Part shown: piece after piece, positions 29,001 to 48,300 of the stretch
Numbering within the stretch: the first letter of the stretch is position 1
Layout of the letters: each line of letters starts with the position of its first letter
Assembly (NCBI GenBank): GCA_009869945.1
Contig: WIXG01000079.1
Span: 62,001-126,000 of the forward strand
DNA from: Mesaphorura yosii
Lineage: Eukaryota; Arthropoda; Collembola; Poduromorpha; Tullbergiidae
Reading direction: 5' to 3'
Length of the DNA: 64,000 bases
Program-made: the position numbers and the translations under genes
Notes under the pieces: model-generated
Seen by the model: the letters and a program-made list of their open reading frames with translations, nothing else
Told to the model about the DNA's origin: nothing
Database searches by the model: none

Positions 29001-30502
29001 AATCGTAATGTGAATGGTCCGACGTACATTGCCGTAATGAAATGAGTAACAATGTGATGTGCGATGCGGTGTGAAGTCTTCCAAACACGTTTGAGGCAGG
29101 ACGTGAACCTTGTTCTTGCTACACGAGTGTTCTGAAATGAAGCGAAACAGTTCTTTCACCCGTCAATGTGGAATTTCCTTTCTTGTGTTCCGGTTCACGC
29201 ACTTTGGAAACTCTGGATGCATTCCCTTATGACTTATCCCTCGTTCTCTGTGCTCTCCCGAATGTAAACAAGGCATTGTGCTTACTGAGCACAATCGCAT
29301 CCCGTCGAGAGAATCGCCAAACGCATCCCGCGAACAAGTGTGAAGTACTGATAGAGAATGGGAAACTTCATTAGCGCGGTGAGAGTGATTGTTGTTCACT
29401 TCTCGCCAATCACTTAGAAAGATAATAGAGCGAACCCGAACTGGGGAACGGCTATCTTGTTCAAACCTCATTTCACCCACGCTCCATGCGCTCCGTATGC
29501 TCAGGCTTCATTCACTTCATTTGATGATCTTTTCAATTTCTTTGCTCTCCTCATATTTATGGCAGCAGTTGCAATAAATTAATTCAATCTTACACGAAGT
29601 GCGAACGAACCCAACAAGTTTCATTCGATCTGCTGGTGCAATGATTCATGCCAATCAGAAAGTGCAGTTGAGCTAAATGATTTTGGAACTAATTCAATTT
29701 TGTTCTCCTGCTGCAGGTGAGAGGTTGAGGCAAATGGATTTCATTCCTTTTGTGGCCATCGGAGTTGGAGTTGGAGGAGTTCTGCTGATTCTCATTCTCA
29801 CAATAGTCTTCCGTTCTTGCCTTTGCCATCCGGTGACGTCACCACAGTCACGACACTTGTTAGCATCGAATTGCAACAGTACAAATGCTACAACTGCGAC
29901 CGAAAAAATTTCGCATGCGAATGGATCGGCAATGTCAGCGAGGAAAATAAAGCCCAACTCGATTACAAATTATGAAGCCATTCCGCAAATGGACGGCGAG
30001 TATGAAAAGAATCCAGACATCATTCCTGGAGAGAATTCTTACTCAGCACGTAAGCACGTTCAATTTGTCGATTTTAAGCTGAGATTACGCTAATTACTCT
30101 GTTGTTCCAGTGTATACAAATGGAAAGTGTCATCTTGTGCTGAATTCCTCAGGAGCTTATGCGGCTGAACTAAACGCCCACAACAATCTCAATTCGAACT
30201 CAAGACCTAATCAAGAAGATTACGAGGATGGATTCCAAATTTCGTCTGGGAGAAATACTGCCACAATATTTGATTATCCAATCCAAGAGCACGTCAATGA
30301 GGATTACTTCCCTCCGTTTCAACCCCAGCGACCAACGAGCGTTGACTTCGTTCTTCCTGAATCTCAAGCAATCATCCAGCACCAGCTAAATCTAAATCTT
30401 CCAGTGACCGTATCCTTTAGGCCAGAAAATAACGACTTCAATGCTGTTTATATTCGAGATAAGCTGCTTCATGATTCTCAGATTCCTGAGAGCTGCGTGT
30501 AA
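17041..30502 (+). CDS. side: Sidestep-family Ig receptor, gene A (5' exon missing)
   Basis: Single-pass surface receptor of the Sidestep family; Drosophila members act as ligands for Beat receptors in axon guidance. Exons: 17041-17173, 18072-18208, 18288-18359, 19386-19496, 19576-19779, 21027-21181, 22114-22261, 23555-23685, 24044-24203, 24510-24749, 24885-24938, 25580-25996, 29717-30049, 30111-30502. All junctions are GT-AG and in frame, giving about 894 residues. Ig1 spans exons 1-3 (ELPCDIF ... YRCRVDF), Ig2 exons 4-5 (LLKCRV ... FTCKASN), Ig3 exons 6-7 ([10 protein letters not shown] ... LICRAENP), Ig4 exons 8-9 (YFECEV ... NYTCLASN), Ig5 exons 10-11. Exon 12 is the fibronectin III domain; exon 13 has the membrane segment ([19 protein letters not shown]) followed by RSCLC; exon 14 is the tail ending ESCV. 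The first exon seen starts with two bases of a split codon, so a signal-peptide exon lies upstream and was not found. The paralogue is gene B at 45.3-61.8 kb. Confidence 0.93.
25997..29716 (+). other. Large intron of gene A before the transmembrane exon
   Basis: This 3.7-kb intron separates the fibronectin III exon from the membrane exon. Gene B has a similar large intron (46328-51212) at the same place. I see no additional exon with paralogue support in either. Confidence 0.75.
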
Positions 30503-30623: not shown

Positions 30624-31646
30624 CGTATTTTTGTCCAGTTTTGTTAAAGGACTTTCGAAGTAGAAACAATAACAACTTCCAACTTTACTCAAGAAAATTT
30701 CGTTGAAGATACCGCTGGGAAATTGAAATCACGCCACTGCATAATACTAGATGACCGTAGCAAGTCGAGGTGGGTTGGCTGCATGCTTAACTTCGCACTG
30801 CATTTTGAGTTCCGCACGCGTTTTTCTGGAAACTTCTCACGTATTTGATCTCCGACTCGACAGCCCTGAACGAGAGTTCATTTTCAGGAGGAAAAATTTG
30901 AAGATGAGACATCGCATCAGTGCTTTGGGATTAAGATTATAACATTTTTCAAAACTTGTGAATTGCTTGTAATTTCATTCAGCTCGCATTGTCGAAGTCC
31001 AAGTTAGAACAACGTTTTCACACAGGGTGGCTCCGGTAGGCCGTCTGCGCTTCTGATTGCTGTCGCTTCTGTTTATGAGCATCAACAACCTCGTAGAATT
31101 TAAATTGAAAAAGTTTTGGAACCTAAGAGGATACATCTATTCAAATGGAAGATGGAAATACATCAATGAATGTATTCTCAGACTTTGTTGCACGTCCTTG
31201 GTGCTGAATTGTCAAGTTCGTAACTCTTGAGATGTGAGAGTCTTATTAGCCTATCTAATTCATCATAATTGCAAGTGTCAAGTAACTAATGAGCACTGAT
31301 TTTCACGACTAATAAATACAGAAGAGCTTGATTGTGGAGTTGACCTTGACGCATCTTTTCTGTGACTGACGTCTGGTTCTGAGTGTTTTAAGTGCAGCAC
31401 CCAATCAAATTTTAAACTATCAACACGATCAGACTTACGTAATGCCAACAACATCTGAAAGCAGTAATTAATGGGGCCAAAGGTCAGGGCAAAGCTCGTA
31501 TATCACTTACATAAATGATAGTTTCTTTATAGGATTGGTAAGCACGATCTCAGCAATTTCGTGAAAATTTTTTTGGGGGGGATCTTGAATGACATATATT
31601 GTCTGAACTGAATACAAAGTGTGAATTTTTAAGTCATATGTACATA
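30624..31646. other. Intergenic region between gene A and receptor gene 1
   Basis: About 1 kb with no supported gene. The promoter of receptor gene 1 should lie here; no clear TATA box was seen directly upstream of its start codon. Confidence 0.6.
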
Positions 31647-33758
31647 ATGGTGATTTGGTTCGGATTTTGGATTCTTGTCGCAGCCATAATTACGGGTAAA
31701 AATAAAATCTTTCTACCCTAACCCTCCCTCGTTTGAAAGCACTGACCATGACAAATTGCAGGCACAAAAGCGTCTGAAGATGAACGAAGATTGTTGGCGA
31801 ATCTATTCAAGAATTACAGCATCATGGAGAGACCGACCGCCAATTTCAGTGAACCGCTGAAGGTCAAGTTTGGCGTATCCATCATACGAATGGTGAATGT
31901 GGTAAGCTTGGTCACATGTGGTTTTTGGACATTTTTCTCGACTCAAACAAGTTCTACGAAATACTTTGATGAATTAGGACGAGAAAAATGGCATGCTTGA
32001 GACGAGCATGTGGTTGCGTCAGGTAAGATCAACAATACACTACGCTTGAATTCATTTCTTGGACAATTGCTGACGGTTCCTGACATAGCTCAAAATACTA
32101 AGTAATAATCTGCTTAGATTTGGAACGACAACAATTTGAAATGGGATGAGGCCGATTATGGAGGCGTGAACTTGCTTCACGTATTTGTGGACAGAATTTG
32201 GAGACCCGATATACATGCGTACAATAGGCAAGTGAATCCCTATCATTGCAAACTGCGTCTTCATCTAACCTGTGATACTAGCTTAATGTGTGTTATAGTG
32301 AGCCTATCGGTTATGACATGAACAACGAACACATTATGGCATTGTTGTACTCAAGCGGACAAGTTTTGCATATACCACCCATGGTATTTAAGACAATTTG
32401 CGAGATGGATTTCTCGTTATATCCTTTCGATCAACACAAGTGCAACCTTAAATTTGGGTCTTGGGTACGGAGTAGTTTTATGGTAAGCAAACGACTTGGA
32501 ATACGTAATTCCCTTTGAGGCTTTCACTTGTATTGGTACTGAATCTCACTGTTGAAAAGTTGGAACTCGGATTCTACAACGACGAAGCACACGCTGACAC
32601 GTCTTACTTTTTGAACAACACCGAATGGGAATTATTAGGTCAGATTATCGGATGGAAGTTATCGAGTTAATTTTTCACTCGTTTTTATAATGTAAATAAT
32701 TATTCCAGAAGCACCAGCTGTCCTTAATGTAAAGGTCTATCCATGCTGCGCAGAAAGCTATCAAGGTGACGTTGATCCATGGCTAGAAAACGTTCAAAAA
32801 TAATTTCAACATAGTTAATAACTTTCGTCCCATTCCAGACATTACTTATACCCTGCATATAAAACGGAAAGGTGAATCAATCTACTTTGGTGCAAAAATG
32901 ACAAACATTTTTATATGCTTCCTGATTTTTCTGAGCCTACTTTTGTCTCCCGCGTCCGGACAGAAATTTTTGGCAGGTAATTTGATAGTTGTAATTAGTC
33001 AAGCTTTTTGCAAGACATCATTCTACGTATTATTTTCATGAATTCGCTGATGAAGGGCTCGCTGGTTTGGCAATCAATTTGTGGATAATCGTCTCTGCAA
33101 ACTCAGTTCTTCCGTTTAACCACAATTGCTATATGGGTAAGGTATTTAGACCTAAGATTAGAAAAACGACATTTATTTGTATCATCTACACTGCTATGTG
33201 ATTAATTAATGTGATATTATGTAGCGCGATACTTCGACCAACTGGCGATTCTTGGCTCAATCATTGTGCTTACGAATTTATTGGTGATCCACATCCATCT
33301 TCAAACGCAGCCGATGCCTAGAGTGGTACAGAATTCGCAATTCGATCAACAGTATGAATTAAAATCTTGATAAACGATAACACAATGCATGCTTTTCTAT
33401 TTCGTGTCAGATGAAGAAAATGCTTATCGGATGGCCATCGTCGAGGTTTTGCGTAATTTGTCCTGCTCGAAACAAGAGACACATCACGACGGAATTAGAT
33501 ACATTCCAAAACTGTGTGTATTCAGAAAATTCAGACGTCTCCTTGTCTAATGAGCCAAATCCGGACACGCAGAATTTAATCTCTGAAATTAAGAATCTAA
33601 AGCGACAAATACAAAATGTTGTGGCGGCACAAAATATTGATGCGGACAGTGCGGACGACTGGAAGTATCTGGCCGTGATTGTAAATCGGTGCTTTCTCAT
33701 TTTCTTTAGCATTGTTTTAGTTATTTTTGTATCAATCAATTTTCCGAGTTTAGAATAA
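31647..33758 (+). CDS. Cys-loop receptor, nicotinic acetylcholine receptor type, divergent pore (gene 1)
   Basis: Predicted pentameric ligand-gated channel subunit, 443 residues. Exons: 31647-31695, 31762-31901, 31978-32022, 32118-32227, 32299-32482, 32560-32638, 32709-32765, 32839-32976, 33056-33136, 33225-33325, 33411-33758. The ATG opens a signal peptide (MVIWFGFWILVAAIITG). The ligand-binding domain has MWLRQIWNDNNLKW, IWRPDIHAYNS, the 13-residue Cys loop C149-C163, GSW at 168-170 and vicinal cysteines C215-C216 in YPCCAESY, the alpha-subunit signature. M1 is about 243-258, M2 265-287, M3 about 298-317. The M3-M4 loop is short and M4 lies near the C-terminus (CFLIFFSIVLVIFV). M2 is atypical: Gln at -1', Ala at 9', Ser at 20'. 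Intron 4 has a GC donor. The acceptors at 32559 and 33055 lack a good pyrimidine tract but keep frame and match gene 2 in exon length. Closest relative is gene 2 at 41.5 kb. Confidence 0.9.
32228..32298 (+). other. Probable GC-AG intron in Cys-loop receptor gene 1
   Basis: The coding sequence runs to TAC AAT AG and continues in frame after the acceptor TTATAG, completing the conserved YNS of loop A and reading on as EPIGYDM. The donor is AG|GCAAGT, the usual form of the minor GC-AG class, and no GT donor nearby keeps the frame. The intron is 71 bp. Confidence 0.8.
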
Positions 33759-33759
33759 A
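33754..33759 (+). terminator. Poly(A) signal overlapping the stop codon of receptor gene 1
   Basis: The last codon and stop read GAA TAA and are followed by A, so AATAAA straddles the stop codon (33756-33758). The 3' UTR would be only about 15-30 nt. Confidence 0.6.
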
Positions 33760-33800
33760 TGTTCATAGGCTGTCATCGTGAGATTCTCCTTGGGTATCGT

Positions 33801-33806
33801 TTTATT
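33801..33806 (-). terminator. Poly(A) signal of the orphan minus-strand gene
   Basis: AATAAA on the minus strand, within 120-290 bp after the two possible stop codons (33924 or 34093). Cleavage would fall near 33780-33790, almost touching the opposite-strand receptor gene. Confidence 0.6.
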
Positions 33807-34092
33807 ACGGGGCAAGTATGGACAAAGTTTTCGAATAATCGGGCGAGGTTGATTTTTGACACAATTTTAACAAATGCACAGAAGACAAGTCGGCTTGGTT
33901 GACAGACATGACTTTCCTGGCCATTACAGCAGTGTCCAAGTTCTCTTGCTCGGCCAGCCGCTGTTATCCGCATTCAGTTTCAGAAGAAGAAATTCTGTTT
34001 CGGATTTCCGTGTGGCGTTGTTGACCAGCTCCTCTGCACTGAGCTGGCGTTTTGAATCACGCTGTACCGATTTCGATCGAGCCAGTTCGGAT

Positions 34093-35371
34093 TTATCTTG
34101 AATGATTTCCTTGAGCGGGTCTTGCGCCGCAACTGCAAGTGACGATGTCAAAGAAAAGTGAGCCCTGCTTTTGTGCATTTTGATGGGAGCGATTAAATGT
34201 GGTGGCAATGGTTGGAATGCTGGCCAATCGCAACAGCGCCAAATATTGCGAATGCCTTTTGATTCGTGCTTCGGTCCATTTTTCCTTATTCCATTCATTC
34301 CAAGTTTTCCTGCTTGTGGTTACGCCAGGACACTTCAGAGTCCAGAACATTTCTCTACTGGATGAAAGAACTGCCTCCTTCGCAATTGTCACCGACTCCA
34401 AGTCGTACTTCTCTGCGAAGAAGCCACGTAGCGAGAAGATGGCGCTCTTGATACTGCTCAACAGAATGTTGGATGCCTTCAGTTGCCGCTCTTGCGCTGC
34501 CTCATCAATTGCAGTCAAGAACTCGCGCTTGTAATCGTCAGATAACCAACCTCTCAGGAGATATTCGTCCAGCTCTTCTTCATTCTCTGAACCGGTGTCG
34601 ATGTCGGAATTAATCTCATCCTCTTTTGCGTGCTCTGGTGTCAGGAAACGCCGCAGCAGTATCGTAAGCGTTATTTCTGTGACTTCCCGTGACTCATTCC
34701 CGGCCCGCTTGATTGTCTCAACAAACTGATCCAGGAATTTCTGATTTCCTTCTTCTAGCAGTGCCCTGGCGGTGAACACTGGATTCGTATGAAATTCTTT
34801 GATTTCTTTAGCTTTTTGCTTAAGCCGTAAACCAAATGGTGACAGTGCTGGGTCACCGTGTCTGAAAAAGTTGTGTGGGGGCCCACCTCCTGGGAGCAGA
34901 CTTGTATTTGGCCATTTGTTGGGATGGTCGAAGCCACCTGATTCTTTTCGTTGCGCTAAGTTGCTGTGGTTGTGCGCTGTGAGTGACGTATTCAGAATTG
35001 AATTCGCTCTTGAATCTGATTTCTGCAGAATTTCGTGAAATATTGGATTGTATTGCATTGGTGCCGAGCCCAGTGTTCCGTTTGAGCCTCGTGGGTCTGG
35101 TATACCATCGGAATCTACTGAAAAGTTGCTTTATTTAAGGATAGGATGGAAGATGTACAGGCAGGGGCAATTGGTCACCATCATTCTTCATTTTACAGGC
35201 GGGGCCAGTGCCAGAGACAGGGATGACGGGGAGTGATTGTTCGTGAGGCGTTAGAGGCGAGTGGTATGTAATTCCAGGAGCTATTGGTATCAGAGTGAAA
35301 TTTGGTTCTAATCCAGCACTTGGCATCCGAGGCCACATACCATACGTAATTTGGTCGCCCATTCCCTGCAT
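34093..35371 (-). CDS. Orphan two-exon protein of unknown function
   Basis: I do not recognise a family. Exon 1 is 35371-35197, exon 2 is 35117-34093, joined by an 79-bp GT-AG intron with donor CCT|GTAAAA and acceptor TTTTCAG; 399 residues. The first third is rich in Pro, Gly, Asn and Ser (MQGMGDQITYGMWPRMPSAG). The middle is charged and probably helical (ARALLEEGNQKFLDQFVETI, LLRRFLTPEHAKEDE) with an acidic patch (DTGSENEEELDEYLL); a Trp- and Lys-rich stretch follows (WNEWNKEKWTEARIKRHSQY). No signal peptide or membrane segment is seen with this start, but the frame stays open about 13 codons upstream, so an extra 5' exon is possible. The 3' end is also uncertain: a strong acceptor near 34139 leads to another open frame ending at 33924. 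The gene converges on receptor gene 1. Confidence 0.6.
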
Positions 35372-35654
35372 CTGATCGTATGTTCGTAGTTCACGCGTGA
35401 AAATTCATGGAATTACTAATTGCCAGTCCACATTTAAATTGAATTTGAAAGACTCAAATGAGAAGTTCACGAGGCATGAGAAGTTGGCATTTGCATTTGG
35501 CATTCGTCAAATTATCAAACGAGGAGCCAAAGATGCACATTCGCCTGTAGTTGTCAAGGCTATTAGTCGTCAGATATCACTCATAATCAGAATTTTTATT
35601 TGCACATCTAAAATGGACACACAGGTAAACTAAAAAGGAACTTGCTTTAATTGT

Positions 35655-37799
35655 TTAACAACAAAGCATCCTGGACACAATTGCGCCTAATCCCATCAGC
35701 GCAGTTGGGAATGGATATGACAGATTCGACCGTGCACTGGAACCTTGTTTTGGGCGCACGCGAACGTCCTGATAAATTTGTTTGGTGCGATTGTGGCTGG
35801 TGTAATGAGGTCTTCTAGTGAAATTGCGTCTAACTGCAGGTTTGTCCGTTGACGATTCCCCATGCTCTTTCCCAGCTTCTGACTTGGAGTCGGTGACGTG
35901 AGGATGAATCTGGCCCTTTTCAGAATCGACCACTGGCCTTGGCAAGTTGTTGGGGGCATGATTCGTGTCGCTGCTACTGCTGTTGTCAGTGTAATGGTGG
36001 TGTGGCTCATTGTTTTCATGATTTTCATGCTTTTCGGTGGTGGCGGCGTCTTCAAAATTAAGATCAAGAAACTCATCTTCCTCTCCCTGCTCATGTTCAC
36101 CATCATGATGTTCATGATCAGTTGGTGGCTCCGGCTCTGGCTCGTGATGATGGCGGTGGCCGTGGACTTCATCGTCAGACCCGTGTTCTAGCAACGTGCC
36201 TTCACGTTCTGACTCCAGGTACCCAATGAGCTTCTGTTTTATAAGGGGCTTCGGGTTCCGTTGAGTGCCTCCGTATTTCCAAGGCAGCTGATCAGGGGGG
36301 ATAGCTGCTAACAGAGCTCTAGTCCAAGCGATTTTCTCATAATCATAAATCACAAGTGAATCTTTCGTTTCTTGTCTCATCAAACTTTTAGCTATCTTCA
36401 GCATTATATCGAAGATTCCAGGAGCTGAAAATCAAAATAACCTGTGAAAAATCTAGAGAGCACGCATGATCAAAGGAGTCATGTCCGCTTACTGTTTATG
36501 AAAAAAATACGATGAAACAATCCCGGGTAATAGTTTTCAAGAATTGGGACCAAGTCCGGAACAAGTGTGAGGCCTGTGACCAAAACCAGTCAAGTTTAAC
36601 GAACGAGTGGTACCACCTGGCAAATTGCTGAATACGAATCTTACATTTCAAGCACCCTGTTGAGACCAAATTGTACCCTGCCAAGTCAACAATCATAAAC
36701 GCCTGTGACACGTTTCTGTGTCCGTCCACTAAGCGTCCGTAGTAGATGGATCTCTCAGTCATTTCGAGCATCAACGCGATATAGCGAATCAACACGTGCT
36801 CTTGCCGGGCAATTGTAGTCTTCCGAAGGTTGAAGTGTCCGACAAAGGCTTGAAAAACTGTAATTATATGAAAAGAATAAGCCAATAAGTGAGAAGAATT
36901 GAGTCATTCTGCATGTGCGCAATAAAAATTGCCGGTCAGAGTCATTGTTCCAATGATTCTTCGACACGTTGTGACTTGCACGTGGAAAAGCATTGACATC
37001 GACAACGTGTAATATTCCATGGTGCAACAATGCTTGTGCTCGCTTGTGCGATTTTATGACCCAATTAGATGAATCAATCAACCAACACGACAAGCCGCTA
37101 CACAAGACGCACACTCTAATGACTGCGGACTATATGTGTTATATAAACGTGTTCTTACTGGGGCGTCCCATCTTGTCCACGGATCCATCCAGTACGAAAG
37201 GATACTCCATTTGTATAGATCTTGGAAATGTTTGATACATTATATTCTCGATGTCATTATCTTCGCGCCACTTCATGGCCTGAAGACGCAGAAATTGAGC
37301 ATGCTCCTTACTACATTCCTTCAAAATATTTTAAAAAATAAAACATTTACGAAAATATTTAACTTACGATATTTAACTTTTCTACTGTCGTATCAATGTT
37401 ATGATGAAATGCTACGAAGTTCAATGACAAGAGACTGTTAGACCAGCAGCACAAACCCGAAGACTAGTCTTGGAATTCACTTACCTCGTAGCCATCTCAG
37501 CAGGTACAAATCCTGCTTCATAAACGTTTCGGTGACAATTTCTTCTGCGATTGGCCTGAACTGAAATTGAAACCAATCGTTAGCGCCAAGTTTTGAAAAA
37601 TCGGAGAACTGTGTCTTGAAAATTGGGAATTGGTTCAATAACTCTGTGTTCGGAGTCCGAATTTAGAACTGCCTATGCCTTGACTAACCTCGGCAAGGAC
37701 CTCCAACTCGTCTTCTACGGACAGCGATGCACGTGTCACGCAACCGAAAACAGTGACCAACAGCAGCAGTGCCAGCTGCGTGCAATTGACGAGTTCCAT
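35655..37799 (-). CDS. Secreted-type CRAL-TRIO (SEC14-like) lipid-binding protein with His/Glu-rich tail
   Basis: Exons in transcript order: 37799-37689, 37560-37485, 37381-37368, 37306-37159, 36857-36645, 36573-36493, 36424-35655; 470 residues in frame. CRAL-TRIO proteins bind hydrophobic ligands such as phosphoinositides, tocopherol or retinoids and usually act in the cytosol. Here residues 1-24 look like a cleavable signal peptide (LALLLLVTVFGCVTRA), implying secretion. The N-terminal helical part has LYLLRWLRE and AMKWREDNDI; the lipid-binding domain follows with VLDGSVDKMGRPI, FMIVDLAGYNL, NYYPGLFHRIFFIN and PGIFDIMLKIAKSL; PPDQLPWKYGGT closes it near residue 265. The remaining roughly 185 residues are rich in His, Glu and Asp (HGHRHHHEPEPEPP) and end in a hydrophobic stretch and Cys-Cys. 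The 14-nt third exon is inferred from frame and family fit. The ligand is unknown. The orphan gene begins 284 bp downstream on the same strand. Confidence 0.85.
37368..37381 (-). other. 14-nt micro-exon of the CRAL-TRIO gene
   Basis: Exon 2 ends at a strong donor (CGAG|GTAAGT) in phase 1, while the next exon, beginning at 37306, reads the CRAL-TRIO helix in phase 0, so two bases plus a few codons are missing. The sequence AAAAGTTAAATATC, flanked by TAG before and GTAAGT after, supplies exactly that and adds E-K-L-N-I, giving LLRWLREKLNIEHAQFLRL, close to the family spacing. No cDNA was available, so this is an inference from frame, splice sites and domain length. Confidence 0.6.
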
Positions 37800-38730
37800 T
37801 TTGTATCGCGTATTTCAGCAAAGGATGTGTCCTGATAATGGTCAGTGGAGTAATAATTTATGCAAAACTGCAAGTCCAGACCCAGACCTGCTCAACAGCT
37901 TTTGTCGGGACAGCGTTTGTTCTTGTTTTGTTCACCAGTACGGCATGAATAAATTGTAGGATAGCAGGACGCGATTTTGGACTTCGCATTTTACAATAAT
38001 TTACCTACCTGTAACGATCATCTAAAGAACCCGGCAGCCTTGAGAAGAGAACCGCGACCGCGGTAGTTTAGTTTTATTATTTAGCTTAGGTTAGATATGC
38101 CGGTCATTCTCAAAAGCTCAGCCGACAAACAAAGATGCTCGGAAGATATTTCAAACCCATTCCATATATCGCTTGAGTTAAGCCTGCCATGTACCAAGCA
38201 TGACTTCCCAAAATTATGAATTAAAGCGACAAAGCCTCTGACTGAAATTGCTTCGAGACCAGTTTCCAGAAGTGGCGGTATGTTGGATCTCGAGTTAATA
38301 ATTTTTTAACCATAATTCTTTAACCTGAATGTAATCATTTCAAATGGTTTATAACTTTCTTGCTTCATTGGTCAATCCTTAGGTGGAAGGTCAACTACTT
38401 TGTAACCTTCGTGTACAGAGACTCTATAAAAGACCAGCATTATAATTAATTACAATGTGCCAGGTTCTTGCCATGGGCTGACGATGTTAACACTCCAAGA
38501 TTTCATGCCGCCAGGCTGACGTATTACGTCACTGCTGGTAGTAAACTGGAAACATTGTAGGAATTAATTCTTTTATAAAGTTATTTAATGCATTCTGGTC
38601 ATGTTCATCATGAGCAAGAATATTTTGTTCCTCAAAGAATTAAGTCACTAGAACAGGATTTTTTTTATTAGCTTTGTTTGATTATATGATGCAAAAGCTC
38701 TTGACAGGTTGCGAGAATTGCAAGAAAGCG

Positions 38731-38890
38731 CCTCACGCGTGCGCGGGCTGCTAGCACACGAAGCTCTATTCTTCTGACCTCAACGGAGGCCTCGCGGGTT
38801 CCACACGCGCGGGCATCAGAGAACAATTGCCTTGACACAATTCTCTGGAAACATTTGTCCAGGAACAAATTGTCTGAGAACAATTTCTAA
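38731..38890. repeat. GC-rich block followed by ACAATT/AAATTGT motif array (copy 2)
   Basis: CACGCGTGCGCGGGC (38734-38748) and CACACGCGCGGGC (38802-38814) are near-identical direct repeats in a GC-rich block. From 38821 to 38890 ACAATT or AAATTGT recurs about every 15 bp. The array resembles the one at 12.3 kb, including the phrase GGAACAAA. Confidence 0.4.
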
Positions 38891-39122
38891 TTAAATACGT
38901 TCCTATTAACGGTGTGTAGCTGAAATCACTCGCATTTGACTTCTCACGTTGTCGAGTAAATTCGGATCAAGTCGATGACGGTGTTAAACAGACATTATAT
39001 CATGTTTTTGAATAGAAGAAGTTATCTGAACTATACTTTAACTATATTCCATGCACATTAAATTCTGGATGACAGATGAAGCCCGGGTAGATAAACCCCA
39101 GATACCATCACAAGCCAAAAAG

Positions 39123-39177
39123 TATAAACAAATATAAACGATAAAAGCTTGGAGTGTATGATAGTGTCAGTTCAGTT
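39123..39177 (+). promoter_or_regulatory. Candidate TATA/initiator core promoter
   Basis: Two TATAAA hexamers (39123-39128 and 39133-39138) are followed at 39167 and 39172 by two copies of the arthropod initiator TCAGTT, about 35-40 bp downstream of the second TATA. If real it could serve a spliced leader exon of receptor gene 2, 2.3 kb further on. No donor site linking the two was established. Confidence 0.25.
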
Positions 39178-41449
39178 GGTGGTCAATAATGCAAGTGGTT
39201 GCAACGTCCCTATCTCACAGTTATGTGTATTTATGCGATTAAATTTTCAAGCAACTTCAAACACATCAGCCATCTAGAAAATGCTATTACCTCCATCCGT
39301 TAACATGACCATGATCTACCGATTATGCATTTTTCGAAAATTTTGGCCCGGTATTGCATACAAATTCGTTTATTTACTCCAATCAGGAATTCATACTGCA
39401 TAAAACATTTTTTGCCTTATCAAATGCTTTTTGGATAGCGTCTTCGCTTCTTCCTTAGAATAAATGATTCGACGAAGTTAAGACATAAGAAAAGATTATT
39501 ATTGGCACTTTGGCACAATAAATATGAATTTCAAATCGAATTACTTGCCGTTAACTTTTCAATTACTCTCTGCTGTAGAATTTTGTTGAAAAATTTCCAT
39601 CGATTTCAACATTTTCATCAACATCAAGAACATTTTTGCTCGCCGTAGACGTGATAAATTCATCTTATCTGAAGTGATCAAATTTACATAACCCTTGCGG
39701 GTAGCCATGTCCGTGGCCATGCAGTTTGTGGCTTTCTATGACATTTTGAAACAAAGTTGGCACCCGCAACCACAAAGTGCAATGACTTAATCTGACACGT
39801 TCTTAATTTAATGAGATGTGCGCGAAGTGTGATATGAATCGCGTACAATTCATACTGCGGCCAAATAATTATTTCAAAGCAAGATTAAATTATGGTTATT
39901 GTTCTTTCACACGAAAGCGAATCTGTGTACTTTTCTTCTGCGCTCAGTTCTCAACTTCGGTCTCCATGAGTTGCATTCGGTATTTACATTTGCACATTGC
40001 ACTGGCATTTCTTTCTTTTCTTGCTGTAAATTCATTTGCACTGAAATCCTGAATGAACGTCAACCTCAACTCAACCCTAATGACAAGTCAAAACTTTTGA
40101 ATTGTAATTTGAGTTTGAGTGGATGGATAAGAACGCATGATACTTTGACCCAACGTGCGTGACTAGGTTTGCATTATATTTGTTTTCAACTGTTGTCCAA
40201 CTTTAGCCGCTCACGAATTCTATGTTGAGAGATTTCCTCTCGAGTAAGCGGAAAGAAACTTGCCGTGCTCAGACGACTACTATTCCATTCACTTCAACAT
40301 GCCAATATGTCAGCATGGTGGAAGCATTGCATTTGAACTTAATGAATTTGTTGCGGGGCTTACCTGCGTTGTTACTTGTATTTTAAGCTCCCCGACCAGG
40401 TGAAAAGCCAGCGAAAAGGCATAACATTCATTCTTGGCTTCGGAAATTCGGAATGGAGCAAATTCCGGCATCGAGGAGTTGAAATTCTGCCGCACATGCA
40501 TTATCCATCTTTATCAATGAAAAGCGAAGTAGAAATAACAGGGCATGATTAACTACATGCTAAAATATTCCAGTTGAAATCACTCGTGTTTGGATAATTA
40601 AAAGGGAAATTGCATTTCATAAGGCAGCGCTGCATTTTAGCATATAGTTTTATAGCTTCATTTTCATTCTCAGGCCACTCTTTGCCAACGCCGAAAAGTT
40701 AAGTACTCTAAAGTTTTAGCTCTTGAACTAATGTGTAAAGTCGTAATTCTCTTTTTCTCACTGAACTTGACTTTCTTGACTCTTTTTCAACAAATAAACT
40801 GACACGCACGAATCTGGATGGTAGTACTGTACTGGTATCAAGTTGTTTCAAGCAACAAATTTCCTAAAGATGAGCCGTACATAAATCATGCGGTACAATT
40901 ATGAGATTAGTCTAGTAAGGATTCTTGGAAGTTGTCATAAAAGTGTTAACCTTTTGCCCTTTGTGTAACATCCGTAAGAGAGTTTCTTTATGTGCACGTT
41001 TTTTCGCAGTCGAAGTCTCCTCTTGCTAAAGTTAGCAACGCCTTTGTCTGCGCAATGTAATCAGAGGTTAGCTCTTCGTAAATATTTTAATTTAGAATGC
41101 CAGACGAAATCACACAATTCAGCAGCTTATGTAATGAGTCGAGCACGTCCCCGCGTGAAGATTGTAAAGATTCAATCATAATTTACTCTAAACCTAGGCT
41201 TAATGAGCCTAAATTGACTAATATTTAACTTTGATAGCTTCAACTGCTGTATCACATAATCATGCAAGTACAACAACACAGTAATAGTTAAGCACACAAG
41301 TATAATCAAGCCATTGCAGACGACAAGTGTGACAAGTCGTGGCACTGGCAGAAAAGCAAGAGTCCAAGTCCAGGACATCAGGACAGAGTCTCATTTCGCA
41401 AAATAGTATTCATGTGAAGTGGGATTATTTTCTTGCTCTTTTCGTGCAG

Positions 41450-41490
41450 GCTCAACTCCCTGGAACCGTTGGTCTTGGAGTCCAGGAACC
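41450..41490 (+). promoter_or_regulatory. 5' UTR exon segment with a 3' splice site upstream of receptor gene 2 start
   Basis: A strong pyrimidine-rich acceptor (TTCTTGCTCTTTTCGTGCAG, ending at 41449) lies 41 bp before the start codon. It suggests that the mRNA begins with at least one upstream non-coding exon. The upstream exon was not identified. Confidence 0.5.
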
Positions 41491-43451
41491 ATGGAACTTC
41501 GCCACATACTCGTGTCACTTCTTTGGCTTTCAGTTTCAGGTAATAATTCAATCAAATGTGGCGAACACGTAAGAACTACATGATTTTCTTGCATTTCAAG
41601 GTGCCCATGGATCAATTGCTGAGCGAAAACTTCTGACGAAATTATTTGAAAATTATAATTCCATGGAACGACCCACAATCGAGAGTAAGGACGCCGTGAC
41701 TGTCACAATTGGCATGTCACTACTGTCAATTATTAATGCGGTTAGTCACACCTCGGAATTGTCGCATGTTCTGTCTGTGTCTCAAGCCTCGTTATCCTCT
41801 TATGTTAGGATTCCAAAACGAACACATTAGAAACTATCGCCTGGTTCACTGTTGTAAGAGCCCAGAGTAAGGTTGTGTCGGAAAACCCTGCCTAATGGTC
41901 ATTAAATGCTAGGAATGGAACGACCCCAATCTGCGCTGGACTCCAACAGATTATGATAACATAACGGATTTAAGAATCCCCCCGTCAAAGATTTGGAAGT
42001 GAGTACAGCTGTAACTGATGCAGCGTATATCGAAAGGAGTTTCAGAAGTGATCAGGTTCATCTGAATAATAATTGTTACTATTTCCTATCCAGACCGGAC
42101 GCGTATCTCTATAACAGTGCACACGAACTGTTCGACGCGACCTTTGAGACTTTGGCAGTGTTAAGATCTAATGGATCCATTGTCTATGTACCTCCCGGAA
42201 TCCACAAAACGTCCTGCGGGTTTGACATGAGGTACTATCCATACGATGAACAGAGGTGTAATATTAAGTTGGGCAGTTGGTCACATGACGGTGGTCAAGT
42301 AAGTTGCGACTCGGGTAAAAACAACTGCTTTGTGGATTTTCATCTTATTTCCACGCTTTTCGTATTAGATTGATCTGCAACTATATAAAGAAGAAAAAAC
42401 AGCAGACGTGTCAAGTTATGCTGTCAATTCTGAATGGATGCTGATTGGTAAGGAGCTTAGAAAGGTTGTGCTTTGACATCGAAAAACTGGAGAACTCGAC
42501 TTTGATTGCAGCTGTTCCTGCAACCAGAGACGCCGTGTATTACACTTGTTGTCCCGAGCCCTACGTCAGCGTGACATTCACCGTGCACATGCGACGAAGG
42601 GGACATGTCATTCTTCTGTGGTACAAAGTTATAAATTCGTTCATTTGCTTGATGATTTTATTGAGTTTTGCGATGCCAGCGGCTTCAGGACAGAAGTTAG
42701 CCATGGGTAAGCATGACGCTCATTCATTCGTTCTATCATGCATGTAGTATTCTAAAGTGCCAAAGAGTGCTAAAAAATTGGTGTCTGTTGCAGGAATTGT
42801 CACCCTCATTGTTAATATATGCACCATAGCGTCAATCAACTCCATGTTGCCTTCCCATCATGACTCGAAACTAGGTGAATTGCGTTCCGAAATCCAGCCA
42901 GCATCAGAATCTGAGTATTATCCAGCTAATTCTAAATGTTCTTAGCATTTTATTTCGCGGAGCTGAGCTCATTAGCTTTTTCATCTGTCTTTGCTAATCT
43001 GCTGACGGTGTACATTTACTACCGGCGCAGTGAGATGCCGGCACTGGTAAATACAACCACCTTTAGAAAATTGTACCATTTCGTTCCTTTAGTTTACGGT
43101 TTAAACCTTGAATATTTTCAGATGAGAAGATTGTTGGACAGAACACAAAGGTCGTACGTGAGCCTAATTTGTCCAAAATGGACCTACGAAATAAACGAAG
43201 CAGCAGAAGACAACCATAATCCTTCATACGTTGCAAGCAATGAAGATACGCAGGGCTTGATCAACGAGATTAACAGTTTAAAGAGAAAAATTTCATTGCA
43301 AACGAAAACTCAGCAATTAATAAGCGAATGGAACTACTTAGCATCTGTAGTTGACCGTTGTTTCATTATTGTTTATGCGCTCTGTATTTTTATATTTTAT
43401 ATTTCGCTATTTCCGTCGTTCAATACTTCAGAAGACGGGATTGTGGGCTGA
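41491..43451 (+). CDS. Cys-loop receptor, nicotinic acetylcholine receptor type, divergent pore (gene 2)
   Basis: Tandem paralogue of the gene at 31.6 kb; 436 residues. Exons: 41491-41539, 41601-41740, 41809-41853, 41913-41998, 42094-42298, 42369-42447, 42512-42706, 42794-42874, 42946-43046, 43122-43451. The ATG sits in a good context (AACCATGG) and opens a signal peptide (MELRHILVSLLWLSVSG). Ligand-site elements are EWNDPNLRW, IWKPDAYLYNS, Cys loop C148-C162, GSWSHDG and vicinal cysteines C214-C215 in YTCCPEPY, a near-textbook alpha-type loop C. M1 is KVINSFICLMILLSFAMP. M2 starts after SGQK and has Ile at 9', Asn at 11' and 19', Ser at 20'. M3 contains SSVFANLLTVYIYY; M4 contains FIIVYALCIFIFYISLF. 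Exons of 49, 140, 45, 79, 81 and 101 nt match gene 1 exactly; the 195-nt exon equals two gene 1 exons (57+138). All introns are GT-AG. Confidence 0.92.
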
Positions 43452-43527
43452 ACGAGACGGTGTTGAGTCAAGGTTTTTTATTTCCAACCATCTCAAGATT
43501 GCTCAAAACATTTCATGACGCCGATGA

Positions 43528-43533
43528 AATAAA
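43528..43533 (+). terminator. Candidate poly(A) signal of receptor gene 2
   Basis: AATAAA is found 77 bp after the stop codon of receptor gene 2. It is the first such hexamer downstream. Confidence 0.5.
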
Positions 43534-45210
43534 GATCTTTATCGTACAAATGGCGCCAGATTACGCAACCAATTCAATATTGTGCGTCTATGCGTTGTAC
43601 GCCTATAGCGTGCACAAAAGTTTTGACCCTCCTAAGGTTGGGTTTCAATTAAAAGTTGTCAGTAGTTATGCATTTAATCTCGTTCCGCACGACCTTTGTT
43701 CACTAATTGAAGTTTGCATCCATTGGACGAGGAGAGGGCATAACTTGGGGATGAGTGACAGTCGCTAAGAAATTATGCGTCTGGTCACATTAATGAAATG
43801 TAAGTCCGTTTTATCCATATTATCTAAAGCTTGAGCAAAGATTGGAATCTTCCCGTGTTAGTCGTGCAGTCTTTCCACCAGCACATGGAAAGACATAGGC
43901 GGCGGGAATTTAACAGCAACTTTGTTGTACTTCAACGCTCTAAGCGGTAGCGACAGTGATGGCGAATGTGTGTAAAGTGCAATACTTCAGCATTTTGGAA
44001 ATTATAAGAGAGCAGTCTAGTGAATTCTAGTGAAAAGGAATTAGGGAGAAGGTAATGAGGAAACGAGAGCAGCGAAAAGATAATCCGATTGTCAAGGCGG
44101 TGCACTCGTCCGCTTTCTTCTCCCGTTCCAGTGCCACAAGCTCCAGCCACCGTGCCATGCTCCCATCTCCCATGCATGAATGCTTGTATGCGTTGTCACA
44201 CATCGCGGGCGAAAGTTTGGAAGGAAGAAGTGCGAGAAATGTGGAGATGAAAAACTCTGATCTTGCTCTCTAATTTGTCCTTTTTTAAAGCATTACTTAC
44301 GCACACTGCGCATGCGAGACACTTTAACCGAAAATGTCTTGAACTGCCATGCCATAAGTTTAAGAGAGCTCAAATGTTGGCAAGACACAACTTTAAATCT
44401 GGCCTTAAGTTCCAGCTGCTTCCGTCGTGGTCACGTGGTTAACAGGCTAAAAGACCCCAATTCTAAGAAGACGGACCCTTTTTTAGAAGGGCTCCGCATC
44501 TCTTAATGATCCTGTTCAGGGCACGGATTCCGAACTTCCTAAAAGATACTAGTCAAAACTCCGGAATTGAGAATGTCCAGTTTCATATAAAATGGGCTTC
44601 TATAACGAGTTGAAGTCTCGAGTTTTGACTTTGAATTCCTTCCAAGTGATGCATTTTGCACGTTTCAATAAAATTTTCTTGCAATATTGAATATCATTAT
44701 TCGGTTTCCGCAACAATTGACTTCATCACGTTGAAATGAAATTTATGAAACGAAGGACGGAGATGCAGCACCTCGTTAGCTTTAACAATTTACAGGTTGT
44801 TGCGAAGATTCAAGCACATGCATGGCATTCCCGTCGCATCGGCATTTTTGGTATGATGACTGTCCGTGAACCTCCACAAGTCAGTACTGCAAGTGTTCGC
44901 CCACATCCTGTGATGTCATGAACCATAGCGCGATGGATGTCCACTGCCGGTCGGGCCCGAAGAGGTTAAGATGACGACGATAAAACAAGGACCGATGTCG
45001 CGGTAACTCATTTTAGATGGAAGAAGGTTCCTAGAACACAACGTACCGGGACCCACCAGCCTTAGCCTATTGTCGGATTTTGGTCGAATCGCTAAATACT
45101 TTGTCATGTTGAAATCAGCCAGCTGTGTGATGTCATTTCAGCTGGCTTCATCTAAAAGCATTGCATAGCACAGAAGTCGTTTCGAACTCATTCATAAATC
45201 CTTCTAAGCT
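43534..45210. other. Convergent intergenic region between receptor gene 2 and gene B
   Basis: About 1.7 kb between two poly(A) signals. Open frames are short and carry no domain signature; I see no gene, repeat or RNA. Confidence 0.6.
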
Positions 45211-45315: not shown

Positions 45316-48300
45316 CTAGACACAGCTTTCAGGGATGTGGGAGTCGCGAAGCAGCTTATCTCTAATATACACTGTATTGTAACCGTTGCTGGCAGCAGAG
45401 GAAGGTGGAGCGGCATGATTCGGCAAATTGGGTTCATTAGTGATTATGCGATGTTGGGAACTGGAAAAGGGCATTTCTGGCTTGAAATTTAGCGCATTAG
45501 GATGGACAAGGGAAGGATGCGGTGGTCGTGGATCGATGGATTCCTGGTAGTAATTATTACTCGAGCCACTGCTATAACTATGGATCACACTTGAGTAGCC
45601 TGCAGCCAAATTATCCGCGTGCTGCTTGTAGTGCCGAAGATCTGCTGAGTTGGGAGACGAAGTCGATTCCCGCTGAGATCGACGAGCCAGTGAGTTATAA
45701 TTCTCTAGCACTACTGGACCCGATGCTGAAATGTAAACTCCTGGCTGCCTCAGCGTAAGTTGGCAACAGTCGTCGTCGTACTCTGAAAGACAATGGAATC
45801 ACAAAAAAAGTATGAGTTTAGCATTCTTTTTGCGTGAAGCTTGACCTCATTTCAAATATCTGCTGGATAATGATGTTAAGGTGTCGCGTGCCAAAATTCC
45901 AGGAAAGAAAAGCCAAGTGGGCACGGACGAAGAATTTACGATCGTGCGGTCTTACCTGCTGAAAAATTATTGGCACCAGGAATAATGTCTGGATTTGTGT
46001 CCACTTCGTTCTTCGGCAGTGGGAATTGTCTGTAGCTATTATTAAGTGAGTTGGAGTTGTTGGTGGTGGTGGTCGAGTGCTGGGATGACATCATCATCAG
46101 CGACGTTCCATGTGGGTCTTTCTCACAGTGGGCAGGAGTCGTGGTTGAAGAATTATTTGTAGTACCGTTCGATCGGAGTAAATTATGTCTTGGCCGGGCT
46201 GATTGTGGGCAAACGCAGGATCGAAGGAGAAGCGTGAGAAGAAAAACGAGGATGGTGCCAACACAAGCAGTTCCAATTCCAAAAACTACCAACGGAGACA
46301 ATTCCATTGGACTGCTCCCGCCTTCACCTACGTAAATAAAATATACCGTGATTAAAGGGCGGATTCCACGTGTACGAGGGAGAAATACTTTCTTGCGAAA
46401 TACTGGTTCCATTTCAGATGCTATTTCAGCATTGTTGCCTGAACTATTAACCCATTCATGTTTTGTAGAAGTATCCCGAGGTACTTTTCACACAGTAGGA
46501 AGTTGAACTTCGCGAATTGGTGATTCTGAATAAAGATGAACGCGGAAATAAATGCTATCACCTTGTAAAAATAACAATATTGCGACTTGCTAATAATTTG
46601 CATATGACGATCTCCAGCATCGAAGAGAATACGAGACGAAATTCAGCGGACTCTAATATGGAGCTGCATAGTAAATCGCACCTTTTTCTGATTTTCAAAA
46701 GTAATGGCAAATACCAGGTCGAATCCCATACCGCACTCCCAGCGAACGAACCAGTGAGCGAAAAAGATCAATGCACGTCGCGAGCAGCACGCGAATTGGA
46801 ATACGCACAGAATACAATTTTATTTAAAAACACGAGAAGGAAAACGGCACATTGGCATCCTTTTTTATTCGAAACATGGATTTTTGGTTCCGAGATTTAT
46901 GTTCATGATAAGGAAAAATGTGTCCGTCTGTTTGTCTTGTCTGTGCGGCTTGCCTTGCCTTTCTCGGAGTGTGAACTAAACTAATCCTGAATCTAAAATA
47001 GGAAATCCATGGAAAGCGCAGCGGAGAATTGGTTTAGGAAATCTAAAGATGAAAAATTTGGGAGATTCGCTTTCTCTGTCTCTTGTTCTGAATGCGGAAT
47101 TTTTTTCAGAGGAATTCTGATCAAGTCTCTTTAAGTAATGGGCTAATGTTGCGTACAATGTGTAAATGTAAATGACGCAGATGCAGGATAAAGACACGCG
47201 ACGGGCTTCGAAAGCCTCCATACCACAACAGAAAGAACAAAAACATTATTGGGCAATTTGATCGATAAAATGTGTAAGAGAACATTAAGAAAAATACTTC
47301 TGTTTATCATTTCAGACACTTTCCCGATTATATCGTAAGTATAAAGACGAGGCCATGTAACGGAGTTATTTATGAATGAGAGGTGGTCTGATGAGTTCTC
47401 GATGAATGGACGTTAACGGTTGGATAAGATCCAATCACAATAATCGGATCAGATCAAAAACCAATGAGCCACAAATGACCGTTGACCAAATCGATGAACC
47501 AACACTGATTCTTGTAATTAGTCCGGTTTTATATTTACAAAGCTATTAGTTATTTTATTCAAGTTACGCTGAAAACGTATGAGAAAGAATATTAATTATG
47601 ATTTGTTGTAATGAATTACGAAATAGAGTTTACACTTTAAATATTGGAGAGCAAGATGAGTTGTTATTTACAAGTGGAAGATTAAAGACTGAATGAAATT
47701 GACGCTGCACTTCTTCCTCTCCCTTCGACTCTCGATAACTCAAAATGTAGCGAGGCGTATTTGTATTTCACTGTTGACTCTCGGCTCATGGCATGACTCG
47801 TTACGCTAGCGTTACAGCCAGGGGATCCGCTCACTCATGCACTCGCAATAATGCCTTTGAACAATCGCGGTCAGGGGCACAAAAAAATTTCTGATGCACC
47901 AAAAATGCAGCAGATCACAAGTTCAGATCGCAATAATTGCGTCAACAAATAAGGGCTCTGCTCTTCTCATTGATCTGAACGTTCTTTGATGTTTACTTGC
48001 GGTTCAGTGGAATCTGCTTTTGAAATTAACCACACGCATCTCTTTGCAGTCTGCATTCGGGGAAATTAGGTTGTGTGAGATAGATAAGGGAAGTGCTTCA
48101 CTTTGTGAGAGTGAAAGATAAACCGAATTACGCACTGCATCAGGCGACGGAGCATCCACGGTCACAAATGCCATCAGACAGGTACGAGTTTGCCGTTTGT
48201 CTTCCAAGTTTCAGTTTGCGGTGAAAGACAGCACAACTCGCAACTCACGCTGGTGCCTTTTCATGTGTACAATGCAGGAAGGATCGCCTTCATTTAATGG

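What the first reader, a model, noticed from the sequence alone, without database searches (positions are those of the whole stretch)
31647..43451. Two tandem nicotinic-type receptors with intact ligand site but altered pore
An ungapped alignment from SG[E/Q]K to Pro 23' against typical nicotinic M2 shows, in both genes, Gln instead of Glu at -1' (cation-selectivity ring) and Ser instead of Glu at 20'. The 9' Leu gate is Ala in gene 1 and Ile in gene 2; position 2' is Leu or Ala rather than Thr/Ser. Asn at 11' and 19' is shared by the pair. Loop A, B, C and D aromatics, the Cys loop and the vicinal cysteines are kept. This suggests subunits that bind a cholinergic-like ligand but conduct unusually, form an anion-permeable or silent channel, or work only as accessory or binding proteins.
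Basis: partly seen in the sequence, partly recalled or inferred. Interest (0 to 1): 0.7.

Follow-up and report, generated by a model that had tools for sequence, protein, structure and literature searches.

The report
Nicotinic receptors with a rewritten pore
A small arthropod genome carries relatives of the alpha7-type acetylcholine receptor that keep the acetylcholine-binding part but have a rewritten membrane pore, so they probably tune, block or mop up acetylcholine signals rather than work as ordinary channels.

Summary
Gene 1 (443 aa, 11 exons) and gene 2 (436 aa, 10 exons) are intact nicotinic alpha-type genes with the M2 residues listed. Q-1' lies in the M1 exon, and scans found no canonical M2 exon nearby.

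They are not an isolated pair. A third gene (contig C51) has the same altered membrane domain, and a fourth place (C382, letters not read) matches it. Tree and introns place them with the alpha7-like (alpha5/6/7) genes. Their ligand domain stayed conserved while M1-M3 was rewritten: identity to canonical subunits, membrane/ligand ratio, is 0.44-0.55 against 1.08-1.30 in 14 canonical subunits. Among the three, M1-M3 is about as conserved as the ligand domain, M2 most: re-engineered rather than decaying, though constraint is weaker than in canonical channels.

Best reading: regulatory subunits that bind acetylcholine but give a charge-poor, weakly or non-conducting pore. Anion selectivity is not favoured (unchanged linker, no proline insertion). 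Arthropod subunits without GEK, and a spider pair with S20', are in print, so this is a new variant of a known kind. Function is untested.

The parts
31647..33758 (+). Gene 1: nicotinic alpha-type subunit, 443 aa; exons 31647-31695, 31762-31901, 31978-32022, 32118-32227 (GC donor), 32299-32482, 32560-32638, 32709-32765, 32839-32976, 33056-33136, 33225-33325, 33411-33758
   Evidence: 10 of 11 exon starts and ends recovered with gene 2 as the only query; PF02931 E 8.8e-59
32118..32765 (+). Gene 1 ligand-binding core: loop A (AYN), Cys loop (CEMDFSLYPFDQHKC), loop B (GSW), loop C (VYPCCAESY)
   Evidence: read from the alignment; ligand domain 40% identical to human alpha7
32839..32976 (+). Gene 1 exon holding M1 and the SGQK linker (Q at -1')
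33056..33136 (+). Gene 1 M2 exon (A9', N11', W13', N19', S20', P23')
   Evidence: not recovered by the canonical-only profile
41491..43451 (+). Gene 2: nicotinic alpha-type subunit, 436 aa; exons 41491-41539, 41601-41740, 41809-41853, 41913-41998, 42094-42298, 42369-42447, 42512-42706, 42794-42874, 42946-43046, 43122-43451
   Evidence: 8 of 10 exon starts and ends recovered by the canonical-only profile over all its hits; PF02931 E 4.7e-63, PF02932 only through residues 360-424 (MA/M4), E 7.6e-8
42512..42706 (+). Gene 2 exon holding loop C (VYYTCCPEPY), M1 and the SGQK linker
42794..42874 (+). Gene 2 M2 exon (V6', I9', N11', C13', N19', S20', P23')
33924..37800 (-). Unrelated gene between the receptors: CRAL-TRIO (SEC14-like) protein with a His/Glu-rich tail (extent approximate)
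   Evidence: PF00650 E 3.8e-23 on a hand-joined translation

Best explanation
The two genes belong to a small paralogous family (gene 1, gene 2, C51, probably C382) that split from an alpha7-like (alpha5/6/7) nicotinic receptor of this arthropod lineage. The membrane domain (M1-M3) was rewritten, most simply once in their common ancestor: the acidic positions -4', -1' and 20' became neutral, the 2' and 6' positions became aliphatic or Gly, the M1 proline was lost, a basic residue and asparagines entered the helices, and two residues left the M2-M3 loop. The ligand-binding domain stayed alpha7-like. Shown by sequence: gene structure, descent, the asymmetric change, conservation of the new membrane domain among the three genes, and intact ligand residues in genes 1 and 2. 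Inferred: the proteins are made, bind acetylcholine or a similar amine, assemble through the conserved ligand domain with each other or with alpha5/6/7-type subunits, and lower conductance, calcium permeability and/or gating of those pentamers. They are thus regulatory, pore-weak subunits rather than stand-alone cation channels.
For: Descent: clade of the three read genes 100/100, with C18a/C18b (alpha7-like) 99/99 and human alpha7 97/95. Gene 2 shares 8 of 9 introns with C18a and 7 with C18b, but 1-4 with the nine canonical genes of other groups and 2 with C18c_1; 175/1 and 240/1 occur only in the two alpha7-like genes and the three family genes, post12/0 only in those two and genes 1 and 2.

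Asymmetry: membrane/ligand identity ratio 0.44, 0.49, 0.55 against 1.08-1.30 in 14 canonical subunits. Canonical-invariant columns kept in all three: 22 of 29 in the ligand domain, 3 of 13 in M1-M3 (p 0.002). Shared new residues: 2 of 205 against 9 of 88 columns (p 0.0005). Stem of the three genes 0.94 in the combined tree; the branch between family and rest is 3.44 (2.27 + 1.18) in the membrane-domain tree; gene2+C51 stem 0.35 in the ligand-domain tree.

Constraint now: within the family M1-M3 identity is 35-42% (shifted control mean 7-8%) and M2 48-52%; codon position 2 is conserved over 3 (0.67-0.76 against 0.22-0.44).

Binding: ligand domain 40% (gene 1) and 47% (gene 2) identical to human alpha7, box aromatics present.

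Precedent: replacing the -1' Glu in vertebrate alpha7 abolishes calcium but not monovalent permeability (stated in PMC2064938, section 6 part 1 read). Drosophila subunit mixtures that include Dbeta3, called highly divergent in PMC8505678 (passage), gave acetylcholine-evoked inward currents with changed agonist affinity or efficacy (PMC9934367, passages).
Against: No transcripts, protein, binding or current data. M1-M3 identity within the family (35-42%) is only somewhat above that of the M3-M4 loop (27-33%, 11-20 gap columns), M1 and M3 alone are 28-42%, and canonical pairs of like ligand-domain identity have a membrane mean of 52% (minimum 40%): constraint is weaker than in canonical channels. 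Mean hydropathy of six pore-lining positions is 1.65, 2.33, 1.72 against 0.82 (C18b), 2.35 (human alpha7), 2.47 (C24b), the only three canonical subunits computed, so it does not set the family apart; 'non-conducting' rests on lost acidic and polar rings and on Trp 13' (gene 1 and C51 only). C51 has lost the loop A Tyr and the loop C Tyr190 equivalent, so binding is not conserved across the family. The ligand-domain tree alone leaves gene 1 unplaced (AU p 0.45 for holding the three together). The membrane-domain tree carries warnings for long branches and for C51's composition. The authors of PMC9934367 note that co-expression does not prove co-assembly in neurons (passage). Only 40 of 100 receptor regions asked for could be fetched, so closer relatives may exist.
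Confidence: 0.45

Rival explanations
1. Membrane-anchored acetylcholine-binding proteins: pentamers that capture acetylcholine or another amine and conduct nothing, a tethered counterpart of soluble AChBP (buffer, decoy or adhesion role).
For: Ligand domain conserved, aromatic box whole in both genes. Acids at -4', -1' and 20' gone and M2-M3 loop shortened. Soluble AChBP is reported in a spider (PMC4569296, passages). Two ligand-domain hits (C302, C863) have no membrane-domain match in the list.
Against: A mere tether should let M2 drift, yet M2 is the best conserved of M1-M3 within the family (48-52%). Four hydrophobic segments in each protein and the stretch before M4 are kept.
Confidence: 0.25
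2. A working channel of its own kind, made by family members together, with neutral filter and unusual selectivity (monovalent-only, weakly selective, or anion).
For: M2 conserved among the three after the change, with shared new Q-1', N11', S20'. The parent line can form homomers: search listing and start of abstract only for tick alpha6 (PMC12721288) and cockroach alpha7 (PMC8471617). K0' is kept with no acid at -4', -1' or 20'.
Against: 2' and 6' are aliphatic or Gly in all three; Trp 13' in two of three. M2-M3 loop lacks two residues and the M1 proline is lost. No proline insertion as in anion-selective receptors (recalled).
Confidence: 0.2
3. Ordinary divergent arthropod subunits of the kind already catalogued (insect alpha9/beta2/beta3 types), perhaps orthologous to them, with no special role of the pore change.
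For: Replacement of GEK is in print for Bombyx (STR, TIR; PMC2045683, passage), Tribolium alpha9 (PMC2064938, section 6 part 1), Aethina alpha9 (KDR; PMC7017565, passage), Bemisia (REK, MER; PMC4647701, passage); spider CsnACh1A/B have K-1' and S20' (PMC4569296, passage). Bee alpha9 and beta2 are high in the Nasonov gland (PMC10947401, passages).
Against: Orthology could not be tested: no arthropod protein collection here. The alpha7-like introns and ligand domain argue for an origin from an alpha5/6/7-type gene. The spider pair lacks the vicinal cysteines.
Confidence: 0.3
4. Pseudogenes or gene-model errors.
For: Weak or absent Pfam membrane match; one GC donor; gene 1's M2-M4 exons were not recovered by the canonical-only profile.
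Against: Open frames over 10-11 exons, splice sites recovered with the other gene as only query, shared introns, codon-position constraint, a third gene with the same motif.
Confidence: 0.03

Closest known systems
Alpha7-like nicotinic receptors: human CHRNA7 and the own-genome C18a/C18b genes (arthropod alpha5/6/7 type)
   Same: Ligand domain 40-52% identical to genes 1 and 2, loop C spacing, Cys loop, intron positions, M4 region
   Different: M1-M3 only 18-25% identical; acids at -4', -1', 20', M1 proline and two M2-M3 loop residues lost
Divergent insect nicotinic subunits lacking GEK (Bombyx alpha9/beta2/beta3, Tribolium alpha9, Aethina alpha9)
   Same: GEK replaced; ion selectivity left open or only surmised in the passages seen
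   Different: Motif here is GQK rather than STR/TIR/KDR; YxCC kept, where Tribolium alpha9 has FxCC; orthology untested
Spider CsnACh1A/B (Cupiennius salei)
   Same: Both -1' and 20' glutamates replaced, 20' by Ser (passage)
   Different: -1' is Lys there, Gln here; the spider subunits lack the vicinal cysteines, these keep them
Acetylcholine-binding proteins (AChBP)
   Same: Acetylcholine-type ligand domain; possible non-conducting role
   Different: These have four hydrophobic membrane segments; AChBP has none
Own-genome C18c_1 (divergent tandem copy next to the beta1-like gene C18c_0)
   Same: Membrane domain less conserved than ligand domain (ratio 0.70), two-residue M2-M3 deletion
   Different: Groups with C18c_0 in the combined tree (100/100), keeps E-1' and E-4', lacks vicinal cysteines: a separate second case

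Membership tests
Nicotinic acetylcholine receptor alpha-type subunit | Cys-loop ligand-binding domain | tested here: met
   PF02931 199 and 212.9 bits, cut-off 26; 13-residue Cys loop in both
Nicotinic acetylcholine receptor alpha-type subunit | Vicinal cysteines (YxCC) and aromatic box of loops A-D | tested here: met
   Both window genes, read by eye; C51 keeps the two cysteines but lacks the loop A Tyr and the first loop C Tyr
Nicotinic acetylcholine receptor alpha-type subunit | Four membrane helices with a recognisable membrane domain | tested here: inconclusive
   Four hydrophobic segments after the ligand domain in each; PF02932 passes in gene 2 only through residues 360-424 (33.3 bits, cut-off 28.1) and is not reported for gene 1
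Nicotinic acetylcholine receptor alpha-type subunit | GEK motif / Glu at -1' and acidic 20' ring | tested here: not met
   SGQK and S20' in gene 1, gene 2 and C51; canonical -1' E in 14 of 14, 20' E in 13 of 14
Alpha5/6/7 (alpha7-like) group | Phylogenetic position | tested here: met
   99/99 with C18a/C18b, 97/95 with human alpha7 in the combined tree, as a long-stem clade; ligand-domain tree leaves gene 1 open
Alpha5/6/7 (alpha7-like) group | Group-specific intron positions and phases | tested here: met
   175/1 and 240/1 only in C18a, C18b and the three genes; post12/0 in C18a, C18b, gene 1 and gene 2, not C51
Anion-selective Cys-loop channels | Pro insertion / Pro-Ala-Arg before M2 | tested here: not met
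   SGQK with unchanged linker length; motif definition recalled
Acetylcholine-binding protein | No membrane helices | tested here: not met
   Four hydrophobic segments
Insect/arachnid divergent nicotinic subunits | Orthology to Dbeta3/alpha9-type genes | not testable with these tools
   No arthropod protein collection held; only passages and one section of papers were read
Ligand-gated ion channel | Ligand-gated current | not testable with these tools
   Needs expression and recording

The most novel reading that the evidence does not exclude
A family of alpha7-derived proteins in which evolution kept the acetylcholine sensor and replaced the channel: membrane-bound acetylcholine receivers with a new, conserved and non-canonical membrane domain, working either as non-conducting sensors or decoys, or as a new pore with a neutral filter.
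Probability: 0.3. Interest if true: 0.7.

Novelty: new variant of a known kind. Interest (0 to 1): 0.45.

Why it matters
In the 14 canonical nicotinic subunits compared here, M1-M3 is more conserved than the ligand domain (ratio 1.08-1.30); in these genes the order is reversed (0.44-0.55), although they descend from the alpha7-like line. If they bind acetylcholine without ordinary conduction, they offer a natural test of which pore and coupling residues are dispensable for assembly and binding, and of what the long-noticed GEK-less arthropod subunits do. They could also be neonicotinoid-binding sites that give no current.

Tried and rejected
Alternative splicing that restores a canonical M2: not supported. 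Q-1' lies in the M1 exon. A six-frame scan of window 31001-44000 for SGEK to M2 gave at best 30 (an M1 segment) against 104-125 for the 14 canonical M2s. Since alpha7-like genes have an intron inside M2, a second scan used 5'-23' only: best 26 in the window, 67-85 for the canonical set, and it found the M2 exons of C18a/C18b as control at 72-77. Spliced scans of the whole window with the canonical membrane profile gave three weak hits (65, 66, 72), the last using gene 2's own M1 exon.

Decay of the membrane domain: opposed by within-family conservation and the shift control, but the margin over the M3-M4 loop is modest.

Raised pore hydrophobicity: tested, not found as a distinguishing feature.

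Recent tandem duplication: not supported; gene 2 is nearer C51 and C382 than gene 1, though the combined tree weakly joins gene 1 with C51 (81/48).

Organism name: not found. COX1 search found nothing, the rRNA search failed, one paper search on compact arthropod genomes led nowhere. TTAGG repeats (26 forward, 14 reverse, control 0) and sidestep-like neighbours (family recalled) agree with an arthropod. Tardigrade and dominant-negative paper searches gave nothing useful.

Rows dropped: C18b_1 (alternative exon fragment, score under 400) from the alignment; C139 from the ligand-domain tree (partial). Of 100 receptor regions asked for, 40 were delivered, so own-genome paralogue counts are lower bounds.
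Full report
OBSERVATION. The window lies in a 93 Mb genome of 1127 contigs (G000:C79:62001-126000) with TTAGG repeats, so most likely an arthropod; the species is not known. I built both genes from the DNA. Gene 1 has 443 aa in 11 exons, gene 2 436 aa in 10 exons; all introns are 59-95 bases. With each gene as the only query for the other, a spliced aligner recovered 10 of 11 exon starts and ends of gene 1 and 8 of 10 of gene 2. A profile of canonical subunits alone recovered 8 of 10 for gene 2 but 6 of 11 for gene 1, missing gene 1's M2 to M4 exons; those rest on reading frame, splice sites and likeness to gene 2 and C51. The pair is 37% identical and shares 8 of gene 2's 9 introns in place and phase.

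LIGAND DOMAIN. Pfam's ligand-domain model matches at E 8.8e-59 and 4.7e-63. The best solved relative of both is human alpha7. Both genes keep the 13-residue Cys loop, the loop A Tyr, loop B Trp, loop D Trp, YxCC and the second loop C Tyr at alpha7 spacing (read by eye). The third member, C51, keeps the cysteines but has lost the loop A Tyr and the first loop C Tyr, so the intact site is a property of the window pair, not of the family.

MEMBRANE DOMAIN. Pfam's membrane model misses M1-M3 in both proteins. Against 14 canonical subunits (11 of this genome, 3 human) the three genes share: Q at -1' (E in 14 of 14), no acid at -4' (D/E in 14 of 14), S20' (E in 13, K in 1), N11', a lost M1 proline (14 of 14) followed by Asn, Lys or Arg within M1, an Asn in M3, and a two-residue deletion in the M2-M3 loop. 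Mean identity to the canonical set is 0.38, 0.40 and 0.37 in the ligand domain but 0.17, 0.20 and 0.21 in M1-M3, a ratio of 0.44-0.55; the canonical subunits lie at 1.08-1.30. Of columns invariant in the canonical set all three keep 22 of 29 in the ligand domain and 3 of 13 in M1-M3 (Fisher p 0.002).

NOT SIMPLE DECAY. Among the three genes M1-M3 identity is 40, 35 and 42% where shifted controls average 7-8%; M2 reaches 48-52%. Shared new residues are 9 of 88 columns in M1-M3 against 2 of 205 in the ligand domain (p 0.0005). Against a strong claim: the M3-M4 loop is still 27-33% identical in its aligned columns, M1 and M3 alone are 28-42%, and canonical pairs of like ligand-domain identity (68 of 91 pairs) have a membrane mean of 0.52, minimum 0.40. 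So constraint is real but weaker than in canonical channels. Codon positions show the usual 2 > 1 > 3 order; part of the position-2 signal may come from hydrophobic composition.

DESCENT. With ligand domain plus M1-M3 the three form a clade (100/100) beside the alpha7-like genes C18a and C18b (99/99) and human alpha7 (97/95). The ligand domain alone groups gene 2 and C51 (100/98) with C18a and C18b (95/89) but leaves gene 1 unresolved; holding the three together is not rejected (AU p 0.45). Long branches are a concern, so intron positions matter: gene 2 shares 8 of 9 with C18a and 7 with C18b, and 1-4 with the canonical genes of other groups (gene 2's ninth intron lies in the signal exon, which the other models do not cover). 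This supports descent from an alpha5/6/7-type gene independently of substitution models. Exon ends of the canonical genes come from the aligner and may include errors.

FAMILY SIZE. Membrane-domain searches of the whole genome find gene 1, gene 2, C51 and C382, plus weak matches to C18c_1, C18b and one place on C227. C382 is 50-55% identical to gene 2 over four stretches of the ligand domain and 54% over the M1 stretch, but its letters could not be fetched. The genome gave 154 ligand-domain matches of Cys-loop type, counted by exon and a lower bound.

MECHANISM. Shown: intact genes, descent, asymmetric rewriting, present constraint. Inferred: expression, binding, assembly, effect on current. 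Loss of the acids at -4', -1' and 20' with K0' kept argues against a normal calcium-permeable cation pore; replacing the -1' Glu in alpha7 abolishes calcium but not monovalent permeability (stated in PMC2064938, section 6 part 1 read). No proline insertion or linker change speaks against a standard anion filter (criterion recalled). Aliphatic or Gly 2' and 6', and Trp 13' in two of three, speak against free conduction in homomers, although mean pore hydropathy does not set the family apart. Changed M1 and M2-M3 loop suggest altered gating. I therefore favour regulatory, pore-weak subunits, with a tethered binding protein and a new kind of pore as rivals.

KNOWN WORK. GEK-less subunits are described for Bombyx, Tribolium, Aethina and Bemisia, and a spider pair has K-1' and S20' (passages and one section read); their selectivity or role was left open or only surmised there. 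Drosophila mixtures that include Dbeta3, called highly divergent in PMC8505678 (passage), gave acetylcholine-evoked inward currents with changed agonist affinity or efficacy; the authors note that this does not prove co-assembly in neurons (PMC9934367, passages). In eight paper searches I saw no account of an alpha7-derived arthropod family with a kept aromatic box and a rewritten M1-M3; I opened ten papers, by passages or one section, and most subscription papers are not in that library.

VERDICT. Observation confirmed; interpretation partly supported; new variant of a known kind.

Noticed in passing
window 19554-30502 (+) and 45316-51627 (-): Two paralogous membrane-protein genes face each other around the receptors (exon pairs 58% identical over 142 aa, 30% over 119, 43% over 61). 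They resemble the arthropod sidestep family (recalled); Pfam gave only sub-threshold Ig and fn3 matches in the + strand gene and none of that kind in the - strand gene.
   Followed up: partly
window 33924-37800 (-): CRAL-TRIO (SEC14-like) gene with a His/Glu-rich C-terminal tail lies between the two receptor genes.
   Followed up: partly
L024 (G000:C18:383500-389500): Divergent tandem copy next to the beta1-like receptor gene: no vicinal cysteines, E-1' kept, T20', membrane/ligand ratio 0.70. A second, separate case of a fast-changing membrane domain in this genome.
   Followed up: partly
L001, L003, L005, L007, L014, L015 (contigs C17, C351, C523, C574, C8): Several anion-type Cys-loop receptor genes look intronless (open frames of 414-467 aa); the C17 and C523 copies are 89% identical.
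   Followed up: partly
G000:C302:53925-54287 and C863:11853-12266: Ligand-domain hits related to gene 2 (38% and 36%) on contigs without a membrane-domain match in the list: AChBP-like, or further receptors with a divergent membrane domain. Not fetched.
   Followed up: no
L020 (G000:C18:334500-343000): The alpha7-like gene C18b holds a second copy of the stretch from loop C through M2, like the alternative exons 8 of insect alpha6 (PMC2064938, section 6 part 1).
   Followed up: no
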